From Akkermansiaceae bacterium (GTDB lineage: Bacteria; Verrucomicrobiota; Verrucomicrobiia; Verrucomicrobiales; Akkermansiaceae), in contig JAPKCM010000004.1 of the NCBI GenBank assembly GCA_028822935.1, positions 62,001 through 126,000 on the forward strand: DNA of 64,000 nucleotides, written 5' to 3'. Position 1 is the stretch's first letter, and each line of letters begins with the position of its first letter. The translations under genes and the position numbers were made by a program. A model generated the notes under the pieces. That model did not search any database. It worked only from the letters and a program-made list of their open reading frames with translations, and had not been told where the DNA came from. Positions 35,030 to 44,750 of this stretch are shown piece by piece.

Positions 35030-37753
35030 ATGCCTGATTCTGATCCATCACCGCAACTGACTCCCATTCCTAAGGAGCTCAAGAAACAGCTCGCTGAGTT
35101 CCAACGCCAGTTGTGGCGCACTAAGATAGTCGAAGCAATACTCGCAGGGTTCTTCGGCTTGATTATTTCCTTCTTGGTCGTCTTTGTCCTCGACCGCTTC
35201 ATCGCCACCCCACCGCTTGCCCGTCTCGGCATTCTTATCGCGGGAACTTCGCTTTTCGCGATCTTCGCGCCGCTCATGATGCGCCGCTGGATCTATGGCC
35301 ATCGCAAAGAAGGCCAGCTTGCCCACCTCATTTCTAAAAAGTTCCCCAAACTCGGTGACCGGCTCCTCGGAGTCGTCGAACTTCAGGACCAAAAGGAATC
35401 CCACAAAACCCTCTCTCCCGAACTCCGGGCCGCTGCGATGGCACACGTCGCCCGCCAAGCCGGGAAAAAAGACATGGGTGAGGCCCTCCCGATTTCCCAC
35501 TACAAGAAGCTCGGTCTGGGAGTGGCTCTGGGAGCTCTCTGCGTCATCCTGGGTTTCTCCTTCGCTCCCAAGGCCGGATCCAACGCGCTCAAGCGCTGGC
35601 TTCTTCCGCTCTCGGACACCGAGCGCTACACATTCACCCAGCTGGACCTCTCAGGACTACCTGATCCCTACACCGTCCCCTATGACGAGCCTTTTGTCAT
35701 CATCGTCCCTCTCAAGGAAGAAACCGATGATCGCCCCGAGATCGCCGAAGCGCGCTACGGCTTGCAGGACTGGCTCGAAACCGATTTGGGTGAAAAGGGC
35801 TACCGTTTCGAATTCCAAGGTCAGCAGAGTCGCGACGTTCTCACTCTTCGCGTCGGCGATGCTCTCCACCGCATCCGCATCGAACCCGAGATTCGTCCAG
35901 AACTCACCGCCCTCGACGCAAAGGTCACTCTTCCCGCCTACCTTCAGCTCGAACCCAAGACCATCGACATCCGCTCCGGCACCCTGAGCGCGCTTGCCGG
36001 AAGCACGATTAAACTCGAAGGAACCTTTTCACGTGACCTCAAAAGCGCCACCGGAACCGTCACCGCTCTTCCTTCCGATGACGAAGTCGTCAGCACCTTT
36101 GAGGAAGCTTCAGAAACAGAAACGGAACAGCCCGCTCCCCTTCCCGATCCGACCCCCCTGAAACTCACCATTTCCGAAGACCGAATCACCTCGTCTCCGA
36201 TCGAGTTGGGCGAATTTCGTGTCGAAATTCCCCTTCAATGGACCGACGTCAAGGGCCTCGAATCTTCCACAAGCTTCAACCTCAAAATCCAGACCGCCCA
36301 CGATCAAGCGCCTCTTGTTTACACCCAAGGCATCGAGCGCCAGATCGTCATCCTCGCCGGAGAAACCCTCGAATTCGAGGTGATGACCGAGGACGATTAC
36401 GGCATCCAAGAGATCGGACTGATGTGGCAAGGTGAATTCACCAAGCCTACCGACGAGTCCCCCGCCTCCGGGGAACTCCTTCTGAAGCAGGGTTCTCCCA
36501 GCAACTCGCGTCTTTCCGAGCTCGCCATCTTTTCTCCCAAGACCCACGGAATCGTCCCGCAAAAATTGACCCTCGTTGGCTATGCGCAGGATTTCAAACC
36601 AGAGCGGGAACGGAGCCTTTCCGAGCCCATCATCATCTACATCCTCACCGAAGACGAACACGCCCAGCTCCTCAAGCAACGATTCGACCGCCTCATCGGT
36701 GAACTCGAGGACGCCGCCCGCCGTGAGCAAAACAACCTCGACACAAACGAGCGTCTCGACCAGCTGAACAAGCCCGAAGATCTCCAAAATGAGGAGAATA
36801 AAGAAAAGCTCGCCCAGCAGGAAGACGCCGAGGATCAGAATGCCGAGAAGATGGAAGAGATCGCCAAGAAGATGGAAGAACTCTTCAAGGACGCCGCCCG
36901 TAACAAATCGATCGAAAAGGAGACCATGAAAAAAATGGCCGACTCGCTCCAAAATATGAAGGAGCTGGCCAAGCAGGATCTCCCTGAGATCGAGAAGAAG
37001 CTCAACGAATCCCAAGACAACAAGTCCACCCCTGAAAAAGCCAAGAAGGATCTCCAGGAAGCGATCGAGAAACAAAAGGAAGCGCTTAAAAAGATGCAGG
37101 AGACCATCAAGAAGGCCAACGAAGCCAACAACAACTTCGAGGCCTCCACCTTCATCAATCGACTCAAGCGCGCCGCCTCCGACGAAGACGGAATTTCCAA
37201 CAAACTCGTCTCCTCAATGACGGGTCAGAATTCCGAGAGCAAGAAGGCCGCCACGCCCCTCCTCGGAGCCGCTGCCGAATCAGACACTTTCGATCCAGTT
37301 TTCCGACGCATGATTGAAATGCTAGGCACCCAGCAACGCCGCACCGGAAGCGACGTGAACTGGATTCAAGAAGACCTCGCCAATTTCTACGCGCGCACTC
37401 AAAAAGAAATTCATAAGGAAATCGTGGACGACATGAAGAGGTCCGAGATCAGCCTGAAGCTTGAAGGTCTCCAAACCCGGATTAGCAAGAATCGGAGTTT
37501 TACCGCCGCTCTTGAAGCCAAGAAGTGGGGAGCTCAACTCCGCGAATGGGCTAAGAAACTCGAAGGCACCCCACCCGATGCCGCTGGTGGTGATGGCGGC
37601 GGTGAAGGAGGGGCCAGCCCCGAGGAGAAAGATTTCGAATTCATGCTCAAAGTGATGCGCATGGTGCAAGCGGAGCAAGATATCCGCTCCCGCACCCGTT
37701 CTCTAGAACAGCTCATGCGCTCCGTCGAACTTCGCAAAGCCGGACAAAATTAA
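35030..37753 (+). CDS. DUF4175-like membrane protein with long C-terminal coiled coil
   Basis: A 907-residue membrane-anchored protein. Three hydrophobic helices lie near residues 33-57, 63-83 and 159-178. They are followed by a large periplasmic beta-rich region (SGLPDPYTVPYDEPFVIIVP, LDAKVTLPAYLQLEPKTIDI). A Lys/Glu/Gln-rich segment at about 540-720 is predicted coiled coil (KMEEIAKKMEELFKDAARNK, KKDLQEAIEKQKEALKKMQE). The layout matches DUF4175-like proteins of Planctomycetes and Verrucomicrobia, often found near MoxR/Bat-type genes, though none is present here. It heads the plus-strand run to 43912, with gaps of only 2-36 bases between later genes. Role unknown; scaffold or stress-envelope function is inference. 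Confidence 0.75.
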   Translation: MPDSDPSPQLTPIPKELKKQLAEFQRQLWRTKIVEAILAGFFGLIISFLVVFVLDRFIATPPLARLGILIAGTSLFAIFAPLMMRRWIYGHRKEGQLAHLISKKFPKLGDRLLGVVELQDQKESHKTLSPELRAAAMAHVARQAGKKDMGEALPISHYKKLGLGVALGALCVILGFSFAPKAGSNALKRWLLPLSDTERYTFTQLDLSGLPDPYTVPYDEPFVIIVPLKEETDDRPEIAEARYGLQDWLETDLGEKGYRFEFQGQQSRDVLTLRVGDALHRIRIEPEIRPELTALDAKVTLPAYLQLEPKTIDIRSGTLSALAGSTIKLEGTFSRDLKSATGTVTALPSDDEVVSTFEEASETETEQPAPLPDPTPLKLTISEDRITSSPIELGEFRVEIPLQWTDVKGLESSTSFNLKIQTAHDQAPLVYTQGIERQIVILAGETLEFEVMTEDDYGIQEIGLMWQGEFTKPTDESPASGELLLKQGSPSNSRLSELAIFSPKTHGIVPQKLTLVGYAQDFKPERERSLSEPIIIYILTEDEHAQLLKQRFDRLIGELEDAARREQNNLDTNERLDQLNKPEDLQNEENKEKLAQQEDAEDQNAEKMEEIAKKMEELFKDAARNKSIEKETMKKMADSLQNMKELAKQDLPEIEKKLNESQDNKSTPEKAKKDLQEAIEKQKEALKKMQETIKKANEANNNFEASTFINRLKRAASDEDGISNKLVSSMTGQNSESKKAATPLLGAAAESDTFDPVFRRMIEMLGTQQRRTGSDVNWIQEDLANFYARTQKEIHKEIVDDMKRSEISLKLEGLQTRISKNRSFTAALEAKKWGAQLREWAKKLEGTPPDAAGGDGGGEGGASPEEKDFEFMLKVMRMVQAEQDIRSRTRSLEQLMRSVELRKAGQN

Positions 37754-37777
37754 AAAACCTCAAACCAAGAACAGTAG

Positions 37778-38125
37778 ATGAAAAAAACGATACTTACCTC
37801 CCTGCTCGGACTCGGCCTTATGGCCCCCTCCGGAGCTGAGGAGAGCAAAAAGCCAACCGAAGCAGCAAAGGCGGAGGCCACCGTCAAACACGATAAAGGC
37901 ACCCAGAAGCTCGCCGATGACCAGGACACTGTTTCCGCAGACGTTCAGGAACTCATCGACGAGCAGACCAATGCCAAAGTCATCGATCTTCTCTCCCAAG
38001 TAGAGTCGCTCATGGCGGAGACCACAGACCGTCTCGACGAGAAAAACACCGGCGGCGAGACCATCGCCATCCAGACCGAGATCATCGAGAGAATCTACGA
38101 AGCAGCCAAAGAAAAGAGCCAATGA
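37778..38125 (+). CDS. Small exported protein, N-terminal part of a gene split by in-frame TGA codons
   Basis: A 115-residue product with signal peptide MKKTILTSLLGLGLMAPSGA and a mostly helical mature part (VQELIDEQTNAKVIDLLSQV, then GETIAIQTEIIERIYEAAKE). It ends KSQ at TGA 38123-38125. The same frame continues as QSSGS, a second TGA (38141-38143), then PNSQQS and the Met of the next open frame. The two halves look like one protein with a Gln/Ser-rich linker in which two codons became TGA (TCA to TGA would restore Ser). It may be a recently broken gene or a leaky readthrough. The family is not named. Confidence 0.7.
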   Translation: MKKTILTSLLGLGLMAPSGAEESKKPTEAAKAEATVKHDKGTQKLADDQDTVSADVQELIDEQTNAKVIDLLSQVESLMAETTDRLDEKNTGGETIAIQTEIIERIYEAAKEKSQ

Positions 38126-38161
38126 CAAAGCAGCGGTAGTTGACCGAATAGTCAACAGAGC

Positions 38162-38425
38162 ATGGGTGCCATGCTCCAAATGATGCAAGAAATGATGGGT
38201 AAAGGCGATAAGCCCGGAGATAAGCCAGGTCAAAAACCTGGCGACAAGCCAGGCCAAGGCCAAACGGCGGAATCCGACGCAGCCAACACCGCCAATGTTG
38301 GGCCATCGAAGGGAATCACTGCCGAACGCCGCGTCCCCAAGGCCGCAGGTCGCTCTGGTGCCGGACTCCCCCCCGAATTCCAAAAAGCGCTCGACGCCTA
38401 CAACAAATCCACTCCTAAAAAGTAA
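38162..38425 (+). CDS. C-terminal part of the split small exported protein
   Basis: An 87-residue frame in the same phase as the preceding gene. It starts MGAMLQMMQEMMGKGDKPGD and continues with KPG repeats (KPGQKPGDKPGQGQ). It ends PPEFQKALDAYNKSTPKK. It has no signal peptide of its own, so as a separate protein it would stay cytoplasmic, unlike its neighbours. That supports the view that it is the tail of the 37778 gene. If expressed alone it could start at 38162 by reinitiation, since the upstream stop is only 36 bases away. Confidence 0.55.
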   Translation: MGAMLQMMQEMMGKGDKPGDKPGQKPGDKPGQGQTAESDAANTANVGPSKGITAERRVPKAAGRSGAGLPPEFQKALDAYNKSTPKK

Positions 38426-38436
38426 GTCCTCCTCCC

Positions 38437-39420
38437 ATGCGCTTCCTCCCATCCGCACTCCTCTTTACTTTAGCGTTGCCCCTCTTCGGGCAATCGGTTC
38501 CTCGTCGTGAAGAGGACCCGATCCCAGCTAAAGTGGAGAACATCTACACCCGCGGATTACGCTACCTCTCACAGTCTCAGAATACCGAGGGAGCGTGGGA
38601 TGACAGTCAGGGAAAAGAACCCGGAGTCGTGGGCCTCTGCATCATGGCCTTCCTGGCCCATGGAGAGGACCCGAATCACGGACCTTACGCCGAGAATATC
38701 CAAAAAGGAATCTCCTTCATTCTCGAGCAACAAAGCAAAACCAACGGCTACATTGGCACTAGCATGTATAGCCACGGCTTTGCCACTCTCGCTCTCGCCG
38801 AGAGCTATGGCATGTTCCGAGACGATCGCATCGCTCCTGCTCTGAAGCAGGCCGTCGATCTGATCCTCTCGTCGCAAAAACGAAACTCACGAGGAGCCTG
38901 GCGCTACTCACCCGAGAGCACCGACGCCGACTCAACCGTTTCCGGCTGCCAAATCGTCGCCCTCTATGCCGCCCGCAATGCCGGAATCCCGGTCCCTGAA
39001 GAAGCCTTTACCCAAGGCCTCAAATACATGGCCAAATGTCGCGGGGGCGATGGTGGATACGGCTACACTTCCGGCATGGGAGACAAGCCCACCCTCACCG
39101 CCATTGGCCTTCTCACCCAAGCTCTCGCCAAGCAACACGACACCCGCAGCTTTAAGGCCAGCACCAAGTATCTCAGTAAAAAGCTCAACTACCGCGAGAA
39201 GTATTACCCTTACTACTTCGAGTATTACATGTCCCAAGCCCTCTTCCACGCCGATGAAAAATCTTGGAACGATTGGAACGCCAAGAACATCGCTTACATG
39301 TCCGTTCTCCAGGGGCCCGACGGCTCCTTCCCGGGCAACAAAGGAAAAGCATTCTCGACCTCCGGCGCTCTCCTCTCTCTCGCTCTCAACTACCGCTTCC
39401 TCCCGATCTACGAAAAATGA
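38437..39420 (+). CDS. Secreted prenyltransferase/squalene-oxidase-fold (alpha/alpha toroid) protein
   Basis: A 327-residue exported protein (signal MRFLPSALLFTLALPLFGQS). It is built of repeats of the terpenoid cyclase/protein prenyltransferase alpha-alpha toroid type: GLRYLSQSQNTEGAWDDSQG, GISFILEQQSKTNGYIGTSM, AVDLILSSQKRNSRGAWRYS, GLKYMAKCRGGDGGYGYTSG and SVLQGPDGSFPGN. The DxDD or DxxxD catalytic motifs of true cyclases are not evident, so binding rather than catalysis is likely. It overlaps the next gene by four bases (ATGA). Similar proteins sit near DUF4175/MoxR clusters in Planctomycetes (established association as I recall it). Confidence 0.8.
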   Translation: MRFLPSALLFTLALPLFGQSVPRREEDPIPAKVENIYTRGLRYLSQSQNTEGAWDDSQGKEPGVVGLCIMAFLAHGEDPNHGPYAENIQKGISFILEQQSKTNGYIGTSMYSHGFATLALAESYGMFRDDRIAPALKQAVDLILSSQKRNSRGAWRYSPESTDADSTVSGCQIVALYAARNAGIPVPEEAFTQGLKYMAKCRGGDGGYGYTSGMGDKPTLTAIGLLTQALAKQHDTRSFKASTKYLSKKLNYREKYYPYYFEYYMSQALFHADEKSWNDWNAKNIAYMSVLQGPDGSFPGNKGKAFSTSGALLSLALNYRFLPIYEK

Positions 39421-41123
39421 ATCTGCGCCTCCTCACCCTTACCGCGCTTCTCGGAGGCTTGTCTTTGCAGTCCGTATACTCCCAGCGCCCCTTACAATTC
39501 CAAAACGTCAATAACTTTCGGATACCAAACCAAGCAGGCAACGACGAGATCCTCGACCTCCCCGAGTCCGACCCCTCAGGCACTGACCTCCTTCGCTTTA
39601 CCAACGGCGACATCATGCACGGCAATTTCGCCGGCTTAAAAGACGGCATCCTTTGGAACCGGCCCGACATCGACGAGCCCATACGCTTTGAGCTCAAGAA
39701 CCTCCGCCAAGTCGTCTTCGATGGCGGAAATAACTCTCCCGCCCAGCCAAAATCTCCCTTCGTCTCGCTCGTCAATGGCGACGAGATCCCAGGAAAAATC
39801 ATCTCCCTCGATGACAAAGCGCTTGTGATCGACAGCCCCCTCACGGGTCAAATCAGCATCCCGCGCGACCAACTCAAGACTCTCAATCCCAATCCCTTCG
39901 GCGGTCAACTCCACTATGCCGGCCCCTTCAGCAGTGACGAATGGGTCATGATCGATACCGAGAAAGAAGAAGTCAAAGAACCCGAGGAAAAGGAGGCTGA
40001 AGAAAAGAAAGAAGAGGACGAAGAGAAACCCAAACCGAATCCTTCATGGCTCTATTCAGGAGCCTCCCTCTACTCCACCAACACCCACGCGGTCGCCCTC
40101 GATGGGAAGCTCCCTGATGTGGGCCGCCTTCGATTTAAAATCGCATGGCGCAAGGGCTTTTCCTCCACTGTCGCCTTCCACGCAGATTTCAAGCGCCCCC
40201 TTCCCAGGGAAGAAGTAGCTCTTGAGCCCGAAATCGACGCCGATGCCGGGAAAGCCGAGGACCAGCCCATCGTTCCTGAGGAAGCAAAGGAACCCGAACC
40301 ACTCAAATACCAGCACCTTTTTGACCTCAAAAATGGCAAGGCCTTCCAGTCATTAGGGTGGCTTCCGGTCAATACTAGCTCCAGCCATCCCCAAACCTAC
40401 GGCAGCTCCTACGTCTTCAACTTTTCCTCTTCCTACGTCAACCTCTGGCGCTGCAGCTTTGACGAAGATGGGAAACCCTCCACTAAAAGCCTTCGAAACC
40501 AACGTCTTCCCGTCAATCTGGGACAAAGCGGAGAAGCGGAATTCGATCTTCGTTTTGACCGGACCAAGAACGTCATTTATCTCTACGTGAATGGCCTGTA
40601 TGCCTCCCAGTGGAATGACCTCGATGGCTATGTTGCCCCCGGTGATGGCCTCGCCTTTGCCGGAAATGGAAATTCTCGCATCAAGGTATCAGATATCCTC
40701 ATCACTTCCTGGAGCGGCACTCCTGACGGAGCCCGCTCTCTAGAGCACGAAGATCGCGACATCGTCCTCCTCACCAATGGAACTGATCGGTTCTCCGGCC
40801 AGATCACCAGCATCGCCGATGGCAAGGTTACCCTCAAAGGGCCCTACGCAGACCTCACGCTCCCTCTTGAGGAACTCTCGGAAATTCACTTCCAACGCTC
40901 CGGACTTGCTGATCTTCAAAAAATTAAATGGCCGGACGACACCGGAATCCTCCTCTTCAATCCCATCGGCCGCATCTCGCTCGTTCCCACTTCTTCTGAC
41001 GAAAACCATCTCTCCGGAAAGTCCCCCATTCTGGGCGACCTCAAGGTGAAACTCGACTCTGCGGCGCTCCTTCAATTCGCCGAGACCCCCGATACCCTTA
41101 GCGATTGGGTCACCGATTTTTAA
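39417..41123 (+). CDS. Exported NGD-repeat / jelly-roll protein, paralogue A
   Basis: A 568-residue predicted secreted protein starting at ATG 39417 (signal MNLRLLTLTALLGGLSLQSV). It opens with two short beta modules built on an 'NGD' turn: LLRFTNGDIMHGNFAGLKDG and VSLVNGDEIPGKIISLDDKA, each ending in a hydrophobic strand (LRQVVF, QLKTL). A Glu/Lys-rich linker near residues 180-205 follows, then a LamG/concanavalin-like region (YVNLWRCSFDEDG, VIYLYVNGLYASQWND). A third module comes near the end (IVLLTNGTDRFSGQITSIAD). It shares this layout with the next two genes. Family not named; a surface or matrix-binding role is inference. Confidence 0.72.
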   Translation: MNLRLLTLTALLGGLSLQSVYSQRPLQFQNVNNFRIPNQAGNDEILDLPESDPSGTDLLRFTNGDIMHGNFAGLKDGILWNRPDIDEPIRFELKNLRQVVFDGGNNSPAQPKSPFVSLVNGDEIPGKIISLDDKALVIDSPLTGQISIPRDQLKTLNPNPFGGQLHYAGPFSSDEWVMIDTEKEEVKEPEEKEAEEKKEEDEEKPKPNPSWLYSGASLYSTNTHAVALDGKLPDVGRLRFKIAWRKGFSSTVAFHADFKRPLPREEVALEPEIDADAGKAEDQPIVPEEAKEPEPLKYQHLFDLKNGKAFQSLGWLPVNTSSSHPQTYGSSYVFNFSSSYVNLWRCSFDEDGKPSTKSLRNQRLPVNLGQSGEAEFDLRFDRTKNVIYLYVNGLYASQWNDLDGYVAPGDGLAFAGNGNSRIKVSDILITSWSGTPDGARSLEHEDRDIVLLTNGTDRFSGQITSIADGKVTLKGPYADLTLPLEELSEIHFQRSGLADLQKIKWPDDTGILLFNPIGRISLVPTSSDENHLSGKSPILGDLKVKLDSAALLQFAETPDTLSDWVTDF

Positions 41124-41126
41124 GCC

Positions 41127-42527
41127 ATGCGTGCTCCCTTCCTTCTTTCCGCTCTCGCCTGCTTCGCCTTCCAAAGCGCATTTGCAAACGATCTCGTCGT
41201 TCTCAAAAATGGAGACCGTTTTTCGGGAACCATCGTCGGGCTCTCCGGCGGCCTTGTTCAAATCCAGAGTCCTCACAGTGATCAACCGCTGAGCATCGTC
41301 AGCGACGAGCTTGAAAACTTGAGTTTCGAAGAGGTCGAGATAATCGAGCCCCCCGCTCACTCCCACCAGGTCAATCTTCGCAATGGCAATGTCATTCCCG
41401 GAGAAGTCACTGGCCTTGATGCTCAAAATCTTCAGTTCAAAACTTGGTTCGCAGGACCACTCAGTATTCCCCGTAGCCAGATTAAATCGGTATTCTACGG
41501 AGTCACCCCTCAGCGCCTCCTCTACCAAGGACCCGACAACCTGGAAGAATGGGATCCCGATGAGGCCTGGGAATTTCGAGATGGGTCCCTCACATCCAAC
41601 AGCCAAAGTAGCATCGCACAGAACCTCGATCTCCCTGACCGCTTCATTCTCCGCTTCCACCTCAGCTGGCCGAACTCACCCAGTGTCCGCATTCATTTCT
41701 GCACCGATGCCGACGAAGGAAAAGAGAATCACGATGGCTACTCCCTCTACTTTTCCAGCCGTGGCGCCACTCTTCAACGCGCCATTCCTCCGGGCACCGA
41801 TGAGGACAAACCCCAGGTCCAAATTCTGGGAGGATCGTCCAAACGCACCAGCGACTTCATAGGACGCCAAACCACCGTCGAACTCCGTGTTGATCGTATC
41901 ACCCGGCGCATCATGCTCTATCTCGATGGCGAACTGCAGGGCAGTTTCCTTGATCCTAATCCCGCTCCCGCAGGAAAGAAGGTAATCTTCGAAAGCCAGT
42001 CTTCGGTACGAGGACAGATCACCCTAAGCGAGATCAAACTTCATGAGTGGGATGCCGTGACGCAGCGACTCCGCGTAGAACCACGCCAGGACGAAGAGAG
42101 CGACACTCTCACCACAGACGAAGGCGACCGCTACTCCGGCCAGATCCTGGAACGCATCGAATCTGGAGAGAACAGCTCCTTCAAAGTAAAGAGTCCCCTC
42201 CTCGCGCAAATCGTGACCATCCCAGAAAAGCGCTCGGCCATCCTCTACTTTGCCGAAGGAACTCTCCCCAAGGATTCCAAGTCATCCTACAAGCTCTCAC
42301 TCGCTTCCGGAGGTGAAATCGACCTTTCCGAAATCCAACTCACCAAAAAATCGCTCACCGGAAAACACCCCTGGCTCGGGAAGCTCACGATTGACAGGCA
42401 GGTCGTGAGCAAAATCAGTCGCCTCAGCGAAGAAAAGAAAACCGTAAACAAAGAAGCGCCCAAAGCCGATGATCCGAAAGCGCTCAAAGGCGCCCAACAA
42501 CTCCGCATCGAGATCGAAGCGAACTAA
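41127..42527 (+). CDS. Exported NGD-repeat / jelly-roll protein, paralogue B
   Basis: A 466-residue predicted secreted protein (signal MRAPFLLSALACFAFQSAFA), three bases after paralogue A. Modules: LVVLKNGDRFSGTIVGLSGG and VNLRNGNVIPGEVTGLDAQN, then IPRSQIKSVFYGV. The middle is LamG-like: LEEWDPDEAWEFRDGSLTSN, SSIAQNLDLPDRFILRFHLS, and TVELRVDRITRRIMLYLDGE. A C-terminal module DTLTTDEGDRYSGQILERIE follows. The linker of paralogue A is absent. All three paralogues keep the 'YxGPxxLxxW' segment at the jelly-roll entry. Function unknown. Confidence 0.72.
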   Translation: MRAPFLLSALACFAFQSAFANDLVVLKNGDRFSGTIVGLSGGLVQIQSPHSDQPLSIVSDELENLSFEEVEIIEPPAHSHQVNLRNGNVIPGEVTGLDAQNLQFKTWFAGPLSIPRSQIKSVFYGVTPQRLLYQGPDNLEEWDPDEAWEFRDGSLTSNSQSSIAQNLDLPDRFILRFHLSWPNSPSVRIHFCTDADEGKENHDGYSLYFSSRGATLQRAIPPGTDEDKPQVQILGGSSKRTSDFIGRQTTVELRVDRITRRIMLYLDGELQGSFLDPNPAPAGKKVIFESQSSVRGQITLSEIKLHEWDAVTQRLRVEPRQDEESDTLTTDEGDRYSGQILERIESGENSSFKVKSPLLAQIVTIPEKRSAILYFAEGTLPKDSKSSYKLSLASGGEIDLSEIQLTKKSLTGKHPWLGKLTIDRQVVSKISRLSEEKKTVNKEAPKADDPKALKGAQQLRIEIEAN

Positions 42528-42538
42528 CTTTGCATCCC

Positions 42539-43912
42539 ATGAGATCACTTTTCCTCTTCCTCACTCTTCCTCTTGCACTCGCGGCCGACGAGACCCTTTC
42601 CCGTCTCACCTTTCTCGACCAGACCATCATCTCGGGAACCGTCACCCACATCGACCCCGAGAAAAAGATCCTCAAGATGACCTCCCCCTTCCTCAAAGGT
42701 GAAGCGGTTCTCAAGATGGACGAGCTTCTCGATATTCAGCTCAACAAGGATGCCGATATACCCGAATCCGATCATCACGCACTCGCCACCGTCGAGCACC
42801 ATTATGACAATCCCTTTGAAGACACCATTCGGGGATCACTCATCGGCGTCGATGACCAATCAGTCACTCTCGACACCTGGTATGCCGGCAAATTGAAGCT
42901 CAACCGCTTCATGGTAAAGGCACTCGATATCTATGCCAACTCTCCCAGCCTCTACCACGGCCCAAATGGCCTGGATGGCTGGGTCTCAAGCGGCAACCAG
43001 CTGGAGAATGATTGGTCCTTCAGAAAAAGAGCACTCGTTTCCCAAACAAATAACTCGATCGCCCGGGAGGTTGAAATGTCGGAACGAAGCAAATTCTCCT
43101 TCCGGGCCCACTGGCAGGACGATGCTTACTTCCGCGCCACCTTCCTCTCGACCAGTGGAAAAAGCCGCAACCCCAGCTCCGGCTACTCCCTCCAGGTCAA
43201 TCGCACCTACTTGAACCTGAGCCGGAACGGGCAGAACAACCTGATGCATCAAAGTGCGCCTCAACTCAAGGAACAGACGAATGCCCTCTTTGAATTCTAT
43301 ATCGACCGGCGCCCTGAAGGAAAAAACGCAATCTACATTGACGGAAAAAAGTTCCACGAATGGGACGGAGTCGATGACACCGAAATGAAGGGAAAATGGA
43401 TTCTCTTTAGCCCCCAGACCTCCAACAAAGCAATCAAGATCTCGGACATCATCGTCAGCCTTTGGGATGGCCGCCTTCCGACCATCACCGATGCAGAGAA
43501 CCCCGATGCCACCGGACTCTTTGAAGGAATGGAGGGACAGCGCATCGACCTCGCAAATGGCGACTCTCTCTTGGGGGAAATCATGGGCGTCAATGAAGGC
43601 GCGACTAAAGTGAAGACCAGCCTTGGTGACGTCATCATTCCCGTCAACCGCCTCCGTTCGTTCCAACTCCACGAATCGGAGGAGACCCTCGAAGAACCCC
43701 GAATGTACGGAGAAGATGTGCGCGCTTGGTTCACCGACGGCGGCTTTGTCACTCTCAAACTCGCCCGCCTTAACGATAAAAAAATCGCCGGCTATTCTCA
43801 GGTCTTCGGTGATGCCGAATTCGACCTTGCTGCCTTCTCCCGGATCGAGTTCAACATCTGGGAGAACGACCTAAACGAAGAGCGCGACGGCGGAGGAGAC
43901 GACGATTGGTAG
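42539..43912 (+). CDS. Exported NGD-repeat / jelly-roll protein, paralogue C
   Basis: A 457-residue predicted secreted protein. I chose ATG 42539 (signal MRSLFLFLTLPLALAADE) over the upstream in-frame TTG. The first module is degenerate (LSRLTFLDQTIISGTVTHID) and is followed by TIRGSLIGVDDQSVTLDTWY. The jelly-roll region begins SLYHGPNGLDGWVSSGNQLE and contains NSIAREVEMSERSKFSFRAH and AIYIDGKKFHEWDGV. The closing module is RIDLANGDSLLGEIMGVNEG, ending LRSFQLHE. The C-terminus is acidic (EERDGGGDDDW). It is the last gene of the run and is followed by a bidirectional terminator. Confidence 0.72.
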   Translation: MRSLFLFLTLPLALAADETLSRLTFLDQTIISGTVTHIDPEKKILKMTSPFLKGEAVLKMDELLDIQLNKDADIPESDHHALATVEHHYDNPFEDTIRGSLIGVDDQSVTLDTWYAGKLKLNRFMVKALDIYANSPSLYHGPNGLDGWVSSGNQLENDWSFRKRALVSQTNNSIAREVEMSERSKFSFRAHWQDDAYFRATFLSTSGKSRNPSSGYSLQVNRTYLNLSRNGQNNLMHQSAPQLKEQTNALFEFYIDRRPEGKNAIYIDGKKFHEWDGVDDTEMKGKWILFSPQTSNKAIKISDIIVSLWDGRLPTITDAENPDATGLFEGMEGQRIDLANGDSLLGEIMGVNEGATKVKTSLGDVIIPVNRLRSFQLHESEETLEEPRMYGEDVRAWFTDGGFVTLKLARLNDKKIAGYSQVFGDAEFDLAAFSRIEFNIWENDLNEERDGGGDDDW

Positions 43913-43961
43913 GAAAGCCGGATGAACTTTCTTTCCTCGTCCTTCTCCTACCAAACATAAA

Positions 43962-43990
43962 AGCGAGGCCCCACGGGACCTCGCTCTAAA
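43962..43990. terminator. Bidirectional terminator after the NGD operon
   Basis: AGCGAGG (43962-43968) pairs with CCTCGCT (43979-43985), with an inner CCC/GGG pairing around ACG. CTAAAAATTTT follows on the plus side, and ATAAAA precedes it, giving U-rich ends in both directions. It can end the plus-strand operon and the minus-strand PEP-CTERM gene. Confidence 0.75.
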
Positions 43991-44009: not shown

Positions 44010-44750
44010 TTAAACTCTCCGACGACGCGACGCACCGAACATCAGCGCTGTTCCCAACAAGAGAGCCGAACTTGGCTCAGGCACCAGTGCCCAACTCGAA
44101 GGAGCGGGCAACTGCGCAGGAGATTGATCAATTTCCGTGTATAAGGTTCCAGCGAGAGAATCCGCACCCAAGGCATTGACTCCCCCATTAAAGTAAGACG
44201 CATTTTGAAACTGAGCCATGTCAGGTGACCCCGGCTCGATCGATTCGTCGAGACCGGCAAGATCCGCTGCCACAACGCCGAATCCAGTATCGTTTCCTCC
44301 CGCAATCGCAGCGGCATTAGCGGCCAACGTGAAATTGTTGGTGAGAGTGACCGCACCGTCGGTCGCAGTCAAAGTGATCACATCAGTGGCCGTCGAAATA
44401 TCAGCATCCAGACGGATGGAGATCACCGAGTTCGCGAAACCCGAAATATCCAAAGTCATGATTCCATCACCAGTCGGTGAAGAAGCAACGTAGCCACCTT
44501 GGTCGTAGTAGTAGACGAGACTGTTGCCGACCAGAGCCAGAGCGCTACCAAGGCCATCGCCACCCGCTTCGAAAATGATGCGATTCGGATTGGAAGGAAG
44601 AGCTCCCACGACCAAACCGACGTCGAGAGTCCAGTCATTGACTCCGGTCACCGGATCATCGGTCCGTGGTCCAGGAGTGAGCGTGATGACCGCAGCCGAG
44701 GCTGGCACGAGAGCCAGAGCCGAAAGGGTTAAAATATTGGGAATGTACAT
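44010..44750 (-). CDS. PEP-CTERM sorting-domain protein
   Basis: A 246-residue exported protein with signal (MYIPNILTLSALALVPASAA) and a beta-rich Gly/Asp/Thr-rich body. The tail is a textbook PEP-CTERM: VPEPSSALLLGTALMFGA followed by SRRRRV, that is a Pro-Glu-Pro, a short hydrophobic helix and an Arg cluster. In the known exosortase system the tail is cut by EpsH-type exosortase and the protein is delivered to the surface or matrix. Exosortase is not in this window. The body is not assigned to a family. Confidence 0.88.
   Translation of the reverse strand: MYIPNILTLSALALVPASAAVITLTPGPRTDDPVTGVNDWTLDVGLVVGALPSNPNRIIFEAGGDGLGSALALVGNSLVYYYDQGGYVASSPTGDGIMTLDISGFANSVISIRLDADISTATDVITLTATDGAVTLTNNFTLAANAAAIAGGNDTGFGVVAADLAGLDESIEPGSPDMAQFQNASYFNGGVNALGADSLAGTLYTEIDQSPAQLPAPSSWALVPEPSSALLLGTALMFGASRRRRV

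What the first reader, a model, noticed from the sequence alone, without database searches (positions are those of the whole stretch)
35030..43912. Tandem NGD/jelly-roll operon: a candidate undescribed envelope assembly
Six or seven plus-strand genes are packed with tiny gaps: a DUF4175-like coiled-coil membrane protein, a small exported helical protein, a secreted alpha/alpha-toroid protein (prenyltransferase/squalene-oxidase fold without catalytic Asp motifs), and three consecutive exported paralogues. Each paralogue has beta modules with an 'NGD-x(3)-G' turn, a LamG-like region introduced by 'GP..L..W', then another module. Signal peptides, coupling (ATGA overlap, 2-11-base gaps) and a shared terminator argue for one extracytoplasmic machine. 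The three paralogues differ in linker and acidic tail, suggesting specialised partners. No named function is known to me.
Basis: partly seen in the sequence, partly recalled or inferred. Interest (0 to 1): 0.68.

Follow-up and report, generated by a model that had tools for sequence, protein, structure and literature searches.

The report
Selenoprotein in a bacterial envelope operon
A conserved set of exported proteins in Akkermansia-family bacteria contains a small protein whose gene is crossed by two UGA 'stop' codons that almost certainly encode selenocysteine, making it a selenoprotein family absent from the current catalogues, inside a MoxR/Bat-type envelope system.

Summary
The operon is real and its order is kept across the family: A (coiled-coil membrane protein), B (small exported protein), TOR (alpha-toroid), P1-P2-P3 (NGD/jelly-roll paralogues). 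In other families of the order the same genes follow MoxR-DUF58-BatA-VWA and the P proteins are one ~1000-1250-aa protein, usually ending in a TlpA-like thioredoxin domain. So this is the distal half of a MoxR/Bat-type envelope system.

Gene B (37778-38425) does not end at 38125: two in-frame UGAs (38123, 38141) interrupt it. In 40 distinct B linkers from four genera every in-frame stop is UGA (51/51). The frame is kept, and the last UGA lies 22 nt before the loop of a 7-9 bp hairpin in 35 of 40, which meets the published bacterial SECIS rules. This genome has SelA, SelB, tRNA-Sec(UCA) and a UGA-containing SelD. UGA-bearing B genes occur only in Sec-decoding genera (40 genomes; 0 of 97 in SelB-negative genera). 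B is absent from a 119-family selenoprotein catalogue (2026), NCBIfam and Pfam.

Caveats: UGA-free homologues carry Ser, Gly or Gln rather than Cys, the Sec lies in a Gln/Ser/Gly-rich linker, and no selenium has been measured. The role of the Sec is inference.

The parts
35030..37753 (+). gene A: 907-aa membrane protein; hydrophobic N-terminal helices, three Ig/FnIII-like beta domains (about 202-540), long C-terminal helices
37778..38425 (+). gene B: exported 215-residue protein when the two UGAs are read as residues; candidate selenoprotein; true stop 38423-38425
38123..38125 (+). UGA 1, candidate Sec codon (site 1); a 6-bp hairpin 38139-38156 (loop CGAAUA) starts 13 nt downstream, -6.9 kcal/mol
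38141..38143 (+). UGA 2, candidate Sec codon (site 2), 22 nt before the apical loop of the SECIS-like hairpin
38158..38176 (+). SECIS-like hairpin GAGCAUGG-GUG-CCAUGCUC, 8-bp stem, -12.1 kcal/mol with two flanking bases on each side
38437..39420 (+). TOR: exported alpha-alpha toroid protein (SQHop_cyclase_C-like), DADST in place of DXDD
39417..41123 (+). P1: exported NGD/jelly-roll paralogue, ATG overlaps the TOR stop (ATGA)
41127..42527 (+). P2: exported NGD/jelly-roll paralogue; NCBIfam NF047433 (Leptospira LA_0442/LA_0875 N-terminal domain) E 4.4e-8, below cut-off
42530..43912 (+). P3: exported NGD/jelly-roll paralogue (TTG 42530, or ATG 42539)
43960..43987 (.). terminator-like hairpin between the operon and the convergent minus-strand gene

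Best explanation
The operon encodes the extracytoplasmic half of a MoxR-DUF58-BatA-VWA type envelope system, and gene B is a selenoprotein. Shown by sequence: B is one protein whose frame is kept across one or two UGAs; a SECIS-like hairpin follows at a fixed distance; the genome encodes SelA, SelB, tRNA-Sec and a UGA-containing SelD. Inferred: SelB with Sec-tRNA binds the hairpin and inserts selenocysteine at UGA 38141, probably also at UGA 38123, so a 215-residue exported B is made when selenium is available and a 115-residue fragment otherwise. Inferred with less confidence: A anchors the complex in the inner membrane, P1-P3 bind cell-wall or outer-surface glycans or proteins through lectin-like domains, TOR is a binding scaffold, and the selenol(s) of B serve periplasmic thiol redox chemistry, sensing or cross-linking. 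Sister families carry a thioredoxin domain on the P-type protein instead.
For: UGA only: 51 of 51 in-frame stops in 40 distinct B linkers; no TAA or TAG reported inside any listed B homologue in a scan of 260 family genomes, 180 with B. Frame kept although the linker changes length in codon multiples. Hairpin: 7-9 bp stem, G-first loop (GUG/GUU/GUC), -8.2 to -13.5 kcal/mol, last UGA 22 nt from the loop in 35 of 40, as the published bSECIS rules require (PMC13188914). RNAalifold finds the same stem with G-C/A-U compensation at the outer pair. A 15-base core of the hairpin occurs in 28 of 116 genomes, in B in all but a few. Own genome: SelA 485.6 bits, SelB 278 bits, tRNA-Sec anticodon UCA, SelD with one UGA. 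UGA-bearing B in 40 listed genomes of SelB-positive genera, 0 of 97 of SelB-negative genera. System: order A-B-TOR-P; MoxR, DUF58, BatA and VWA/GATase upstream in other families; orthologues of these at another locus of this genome; redoxin-type thioredoxin domain at the end of the fused P protein.
Against: UGA-free B homologues carry Ser, Gly, Gln or other residues in the linker, almost never Cys, which is unusual for selenoproteins. The site is a low-complexity linker. Two UGA-free genomes keep the hairpin (G057, G048). Part of the hairpin follows from the peptide: 23% of synonymous codings of QSMGAML already give a stem of 7 bp or more. UGA 1 is 40 nt from the main loop, outside 16-37; its own hairpin is -6.9, just short of -7.5 kcal/mol. 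Three distinct UGA-positive linkers have only the 40-nt site. Sequences are related, and the genus-level test alone is weak (p 0.07). Selenium was not measured, and the redox role is inference.
Confidence: 0.88

Rival explanations
1. Gene B has split into two genes. The UGAs are real stops; the first ORF makes a 115-aa exported protein and ribosomes restart at the ATG of MGAML to make an 87-aa cytoplasmic protein.
For: Both halves are open reading frames and an ATG follows the stop. The 5' half alone carries the signal peptide.
Against: The frame is kept in every UGA-positive case despite length changes. All 51 stops are UGA. The second half would lack a signal peptide though homologues are one exported protein. 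UGA-bearing genes are confined to Sec-decoding genera.
Confidence: 0.05
2. Programmed or leaky UGA readthrough by an ordinary tRNA, with the hairpin only stimulating it; no selenium is involved.
For: UGA followed by C in 41 of 51 cases, a context that from general knowledge tends to be leaky. Homologues without UGA have no Cys in the linker in nearly all cases.
Against: Restriction to SelB/tRNA-Sec genera, SECIS-like geometry with fixed 22-nt spacing, and a full Sec pathway in this genome.
Confidence: 0.06
3. The UGAs are sequencing or assembly errors, or the gene is decaying.
For: Most of the genomes are draft metagenome assemblies.
Against: Same position in 40 distinct linkers from four genera, never TAA or TAG, second half conserved.
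Confidence: 0.01

Closest known systems
Bacterial selenoproteins with bSECIS (119 families/subfamilies, Table 1 of PMC13188914)
   Same: In-frame UGA, hairpin with 7-9 bp stem, G-first loop, 16-37 nt spacing, SelA/SelB/SelC/SelD in the genome.
   Different: No listed family matches B. Sec sits in a Gln/Ser/Gly-rich linker, and UGA-free homologues have Ser, Gly or Gln rather than Cys. Two-Sec forms are UxxxxxU and, in one genome, UGGU.
MoxR-DUF58-Bat operons (Bacteroides aerotolerance, Leptospira, Borrelia BB0170-0176, Rhizobium RL3499-3502; as summarised in PMC5700661)
   Same: In sister families A-B-TOR-P directly follow MoxR, DUF58, BatA and a VWA/GATase protein. Proposed roles for such operons, periplasmic reducing power or envelope integrity, fit a selenoprotein or thioredoxin partner.
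   Different: The window operon holds none of the MoxR/DUF58/BatA/VWA genes; in this genome they are on another contig. A, TOR and NGD/jelly-roll proteins are not among the Bat genes listed in PMC5700661.
Squalene-hopene cyclase / prenyltransferase alpha-toroid (PF13243, PF00432)
   Same: TOR matches the toroid repeats (E 3.5e-7).
   Different: Single 327-aa exported toroid, DADST instead of DXDD, part of an envelope operon.
ConA-like lectin/LamG jelly rolls (e.g. galactocerebrosidase lectin domain, ERGIC-53, CBM66)
   Same: Fold of P3 136-315, Z 15-16.
   Different: 6-16% identity; framed by four NGD-type beta modules.
NCBIfam NF047433, Leptospira LA_0442/LA_0875 N-terminal domain
   Same: NGD module of P2 (E 4.4e-8).
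   Different: Below the curated cut-off; different architecture.
DUF4175 (PF13779)
   Same: A paralogue of A in this genome matches weakly (E 0.0015).
   Different: A itself has no Pfam match.

Membership tests
bacterial selenoprotein | in-frame UGA with coding sequence conserved on both sides | tested here: met
bacterial selenoprotein | SECIS-like hairpin after UGA 2 meeting published constraints (loop 3-9 nt, stem 4-16 bp, G in the first two loop positions, 16-37 nt, MFE at most -7.5) | tested here: met
   spacing 22 nt, loop GUG, stem 8 bp, -12.1 kcal/mol (rules)
bacterial selenoprotein | SECIS-like hairpin after UGA 1 | tested here: inconclusive
   own hairpin 19 nt to loop, 6 bp, -6.9 kcal/mol, just short of the energy rule
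bacterial selenoprotein | Sec pathway in the genome (selA, selB, selC, selD) | tested here: met
bacterial selenoprotein | Cys-containing homologues at the Sec position (customary, not obligatory) | tested here: not met
   UGA-free homologues carry Ser, Gly, Gln or others; among them a linker Cys is seen in L064 only
bacterial selenoprotein | selenium in the protein | not testable with these tools
   needs 75Se labelling or mass spectrometry
MoxR/DUF58/Bat system | MoxR, DUF58, BatA and VWA genes in the same operon | tested here: not met
   absent from the window operon; orthologues at G000:C57; present in the same operon in other families of the order
squalene-hopene cyclase | catalytic DXDD | tested here: not met
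   DADST/DADTT
ConA-like/LamG jelly-roll domain (P3) | fold | tested here: met
   Z 15-16, about 3 A over about 160 residues
DUF4175 (gene A) | PF13779 match | tested here: not met
   no family at E up to 1

The most novel reading that the evidence does not exclude
B uses selenocysteine not as a catalytic substitute for cysteine but as one or two reactive or cross-linking residues in a flexible linker of an envelope-machine subunit (UxxxxxU could form a diselenide), so that selenium supply decides between a full-length and a truncated periplasmic subunit of a MoxR/Bat system.
Probability: 0.35. Interest if true: 0.85.

Novelty: new variant of a known kind. Interest (0 to 1): 0.74.

Why it matters
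Selenoprotein families are normally recognised by Sec/Cys pairs in conserved redox sites. This one has no Cys counterpart and lies in a linker, so searches based on Sec/Cys pairs would miss it, and standard gene callers would cut the gene in two. It also ties selenium to MoxR/Bat-type envelope operons, whose role in oxygen tolerance and envelope integrity is unresolved. The same operon carries a thioredoxin domain in families where B is not a selenoprotein of this kind. That makes a redox role for these operons directly testable.

Tried and rejected
Split-gene, plain readthrough and assembly-error readings of B (see rivals). The idea that the window operon is a free-standing new machine: rejected because it follows MoxR-DUF58-BatA-VWA in other families of the order. 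The hairpin as a stand-alone proof: weakened by the synonymous-coding control (23% reach 7 bp by chance), so the argument rests on UGA-only, frame, fixed spacing and the Sec-genus restriction together. Literature searches for DUF4175 or squalene-oxidase repeats in Verrucomicrobia, for MoxR+DUF58 in Planctomycetes, and for an Akkermansia mucin-utilisation operon with ExbD found nothing useful. Whole-model Foldseek hits of P3 to large lectin-bearing proteins, clostridial neurotoxin binding domains among them, reflect the common jelly roll only (low TM-scores) and say nothing about function. Profile searches of A and P3 against PDB sequences found nothing credible. Whether B and the 500-800-aa B' of other families are homologous was not settled.
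Full report
Observation. P3 used as a query finds only P2 and P1 elsewhere in the genome. Pfam and NCBIfam give little for the operon: TOR matches squalene-cyclase toroid repeats, the P2 NGD module matches a Leptospira domain model below its cut-off, and A has no Pfam match. AlphaFold2 models give P3 four NGD modules around a ConA/LamG-like jelly roll. They give A an N-terminal membrane region, Ig/FnIII-like domains and long helices.

Conservation. TOR is found in 111 of 116 genomes of the order and the P family in 71 of 116. Record titles place the family as Akkermansiaceae, including Roseibacillus, Luteolibacter and Haloferula. The order A-B-TOR-P1-P2-P3 is kept in most family loci examined. 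Variations: one genus (g3) has two P genes or fewer; in genus g10 the B gene, and apparently A with it, lies on another contig than TOR-P1-P2-P3; some loci have extra P copies. In other families of the order the run is MoxR, DUF58, BatA, VWA/GATase-like, A, B' (500-800 aa), TOR and one large P protein, as in L163. The large P proteins tested carry a redoxin/TlpA-type thioredoxin domain at the C-terminus, and one also a PPIase domain. In the window's own genome the MoxR-DUF58-BatA-VWA set lies at G000:C57, and a paralogous BatA-VWA-A-TOR set at G000:C134. DUF58 has 5-12 matches per genome, so such systems are many here. The window operon is best read as the distal half of a MoxR/Bat-type system that has become separated from its proximal half in this family.

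Gene B. The ORF from 37778 stops at a UGA (38123-38125), but the same frame continues past a second UGA (38141-38143) to 38425, and relatives have the two parts as one protein. Across the fetched loci there are 40 distinct linker sequences with in-frame stops: all 51 stops are UGA, the last UGA lies exactly six codons before the anchor codon in 35 of 40, and two UGAs are six codons apart in 10 of 11. In a scan of 260 family genomes, 180 have B, and stops inside the listed B genes are only ever UGA. UGA-positive genera are g1, g16, g12 and g9.

SECIS. The hairpin GAGCAUGG-GUG-CCAUGCUC (window 38158-38176) has its loop 22 nt after UGA 2 and folds to -12.1 kcal/mol. Published rules ask for a 3-9 nt loop, a 4-16 bp stem, G in the first two loop positions, 16-37 nt and at most -7.5 kcal/mol (PMC13188914). 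Over 40 distinct contexts the stem is 7-9 bp and the loop GUG, GUU or GUC; the outer pair is G-C in 23, A-U in 9, G-U in 3 and unpaired in 5. RNAalifold picks the same stem with compensatory change at the outer pair. In genus g12 Ala becomes Ser (GCC to TCC), which changes only the loop. A 15-base core of the hairpin is found in 28 of 116 genomes, nearly always once and in B. Control: 23% of synonymous codings of the peptide would give 7 bp or more, so the hairpin alone is moderate evidence. UGA 1 has a weaker hairpin of its own, -6.9 kcal/mol.

Sec pathway. The genome has SelA, SelB, a tRNA-Sec with anticodon UCA and a SelD that itself contains one UGA. Among listed B genes, 40 UGA-positive genomes are all in genera where SelB was found and 0 of 97 are in genera whose sampled members lack SelB (genus SelB status from the sample). 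In the per-genome table one UGA-positive genome, G007, lacked SelB and tRNA-Sec, but its SelD carries a UGA, so incompleteness is likely. UGA-free B also occurs in Sec-decoding genomes (G010, G011 and others), so Sec in B is optional over evolution.

Novelty. B read through the UGAs has no convincing match in NCBIfam or Pfam. No row of the 119-family selenoprotein table of PMC13188914 describes it. A literature search for selenocysteine with Roseibacillus found nothing. Open-access papers only were searched.

Mechanism. Shown: sequence anatomy, conservation and pathway. Inferred: Sec insertion at UGA 2 and probably UGA 1. Speculative: what the selenols do. B of the window has no Cys, so any redox partner is the second Sec or another protein. 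Earlier proposals for Bat operons, periplasmic reducing power or envelope integrity (PMC5700661), fit a selenoprotein here and a thioredoxin domain in sister families, but this link is untested.

Noticed in passing
window 44010-44750 (-): Convergent gene for a secreted protein ending in a PEP-CTERM-like sorting signal (VPEPSSALLLGTALMFGASRRRRV); shares the hairpin terminator with the operon.
   Followed up: no
G000:C134:1-16036 (locus L165): A paralogous set in the same genome: VWA protein, a 1527-aa relative of A, and a second TOR, followed by large unknown proteins and a sialic-acid-esterase-like gene.
   Followed up: partly
L076:10183-13956 (+): Fused P protein of another family carries a parvulin-type PPIase and a thioredoxin domain, pointing to extracytoplasmic protein folding.
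   Followed up: no
L256 (G057) and L089 (G048, Roseibacillus persicicus contig as in L135): B genes without UGA that still keep the SECIS-like hairpin; looks like loss of Sec with Ser or other codons at the sites.
   Followed up: partly
L251 (G294): Two UGAs only three codons apart (UGGU), a possible UxxU motif, unlike the usual six-codon spacing.
   Followed up: no
G000:C53:6429-7358: SelD of this genome is itself interrupted by one UGA, as in known selenoprotein SelD.
   Followed up: yes
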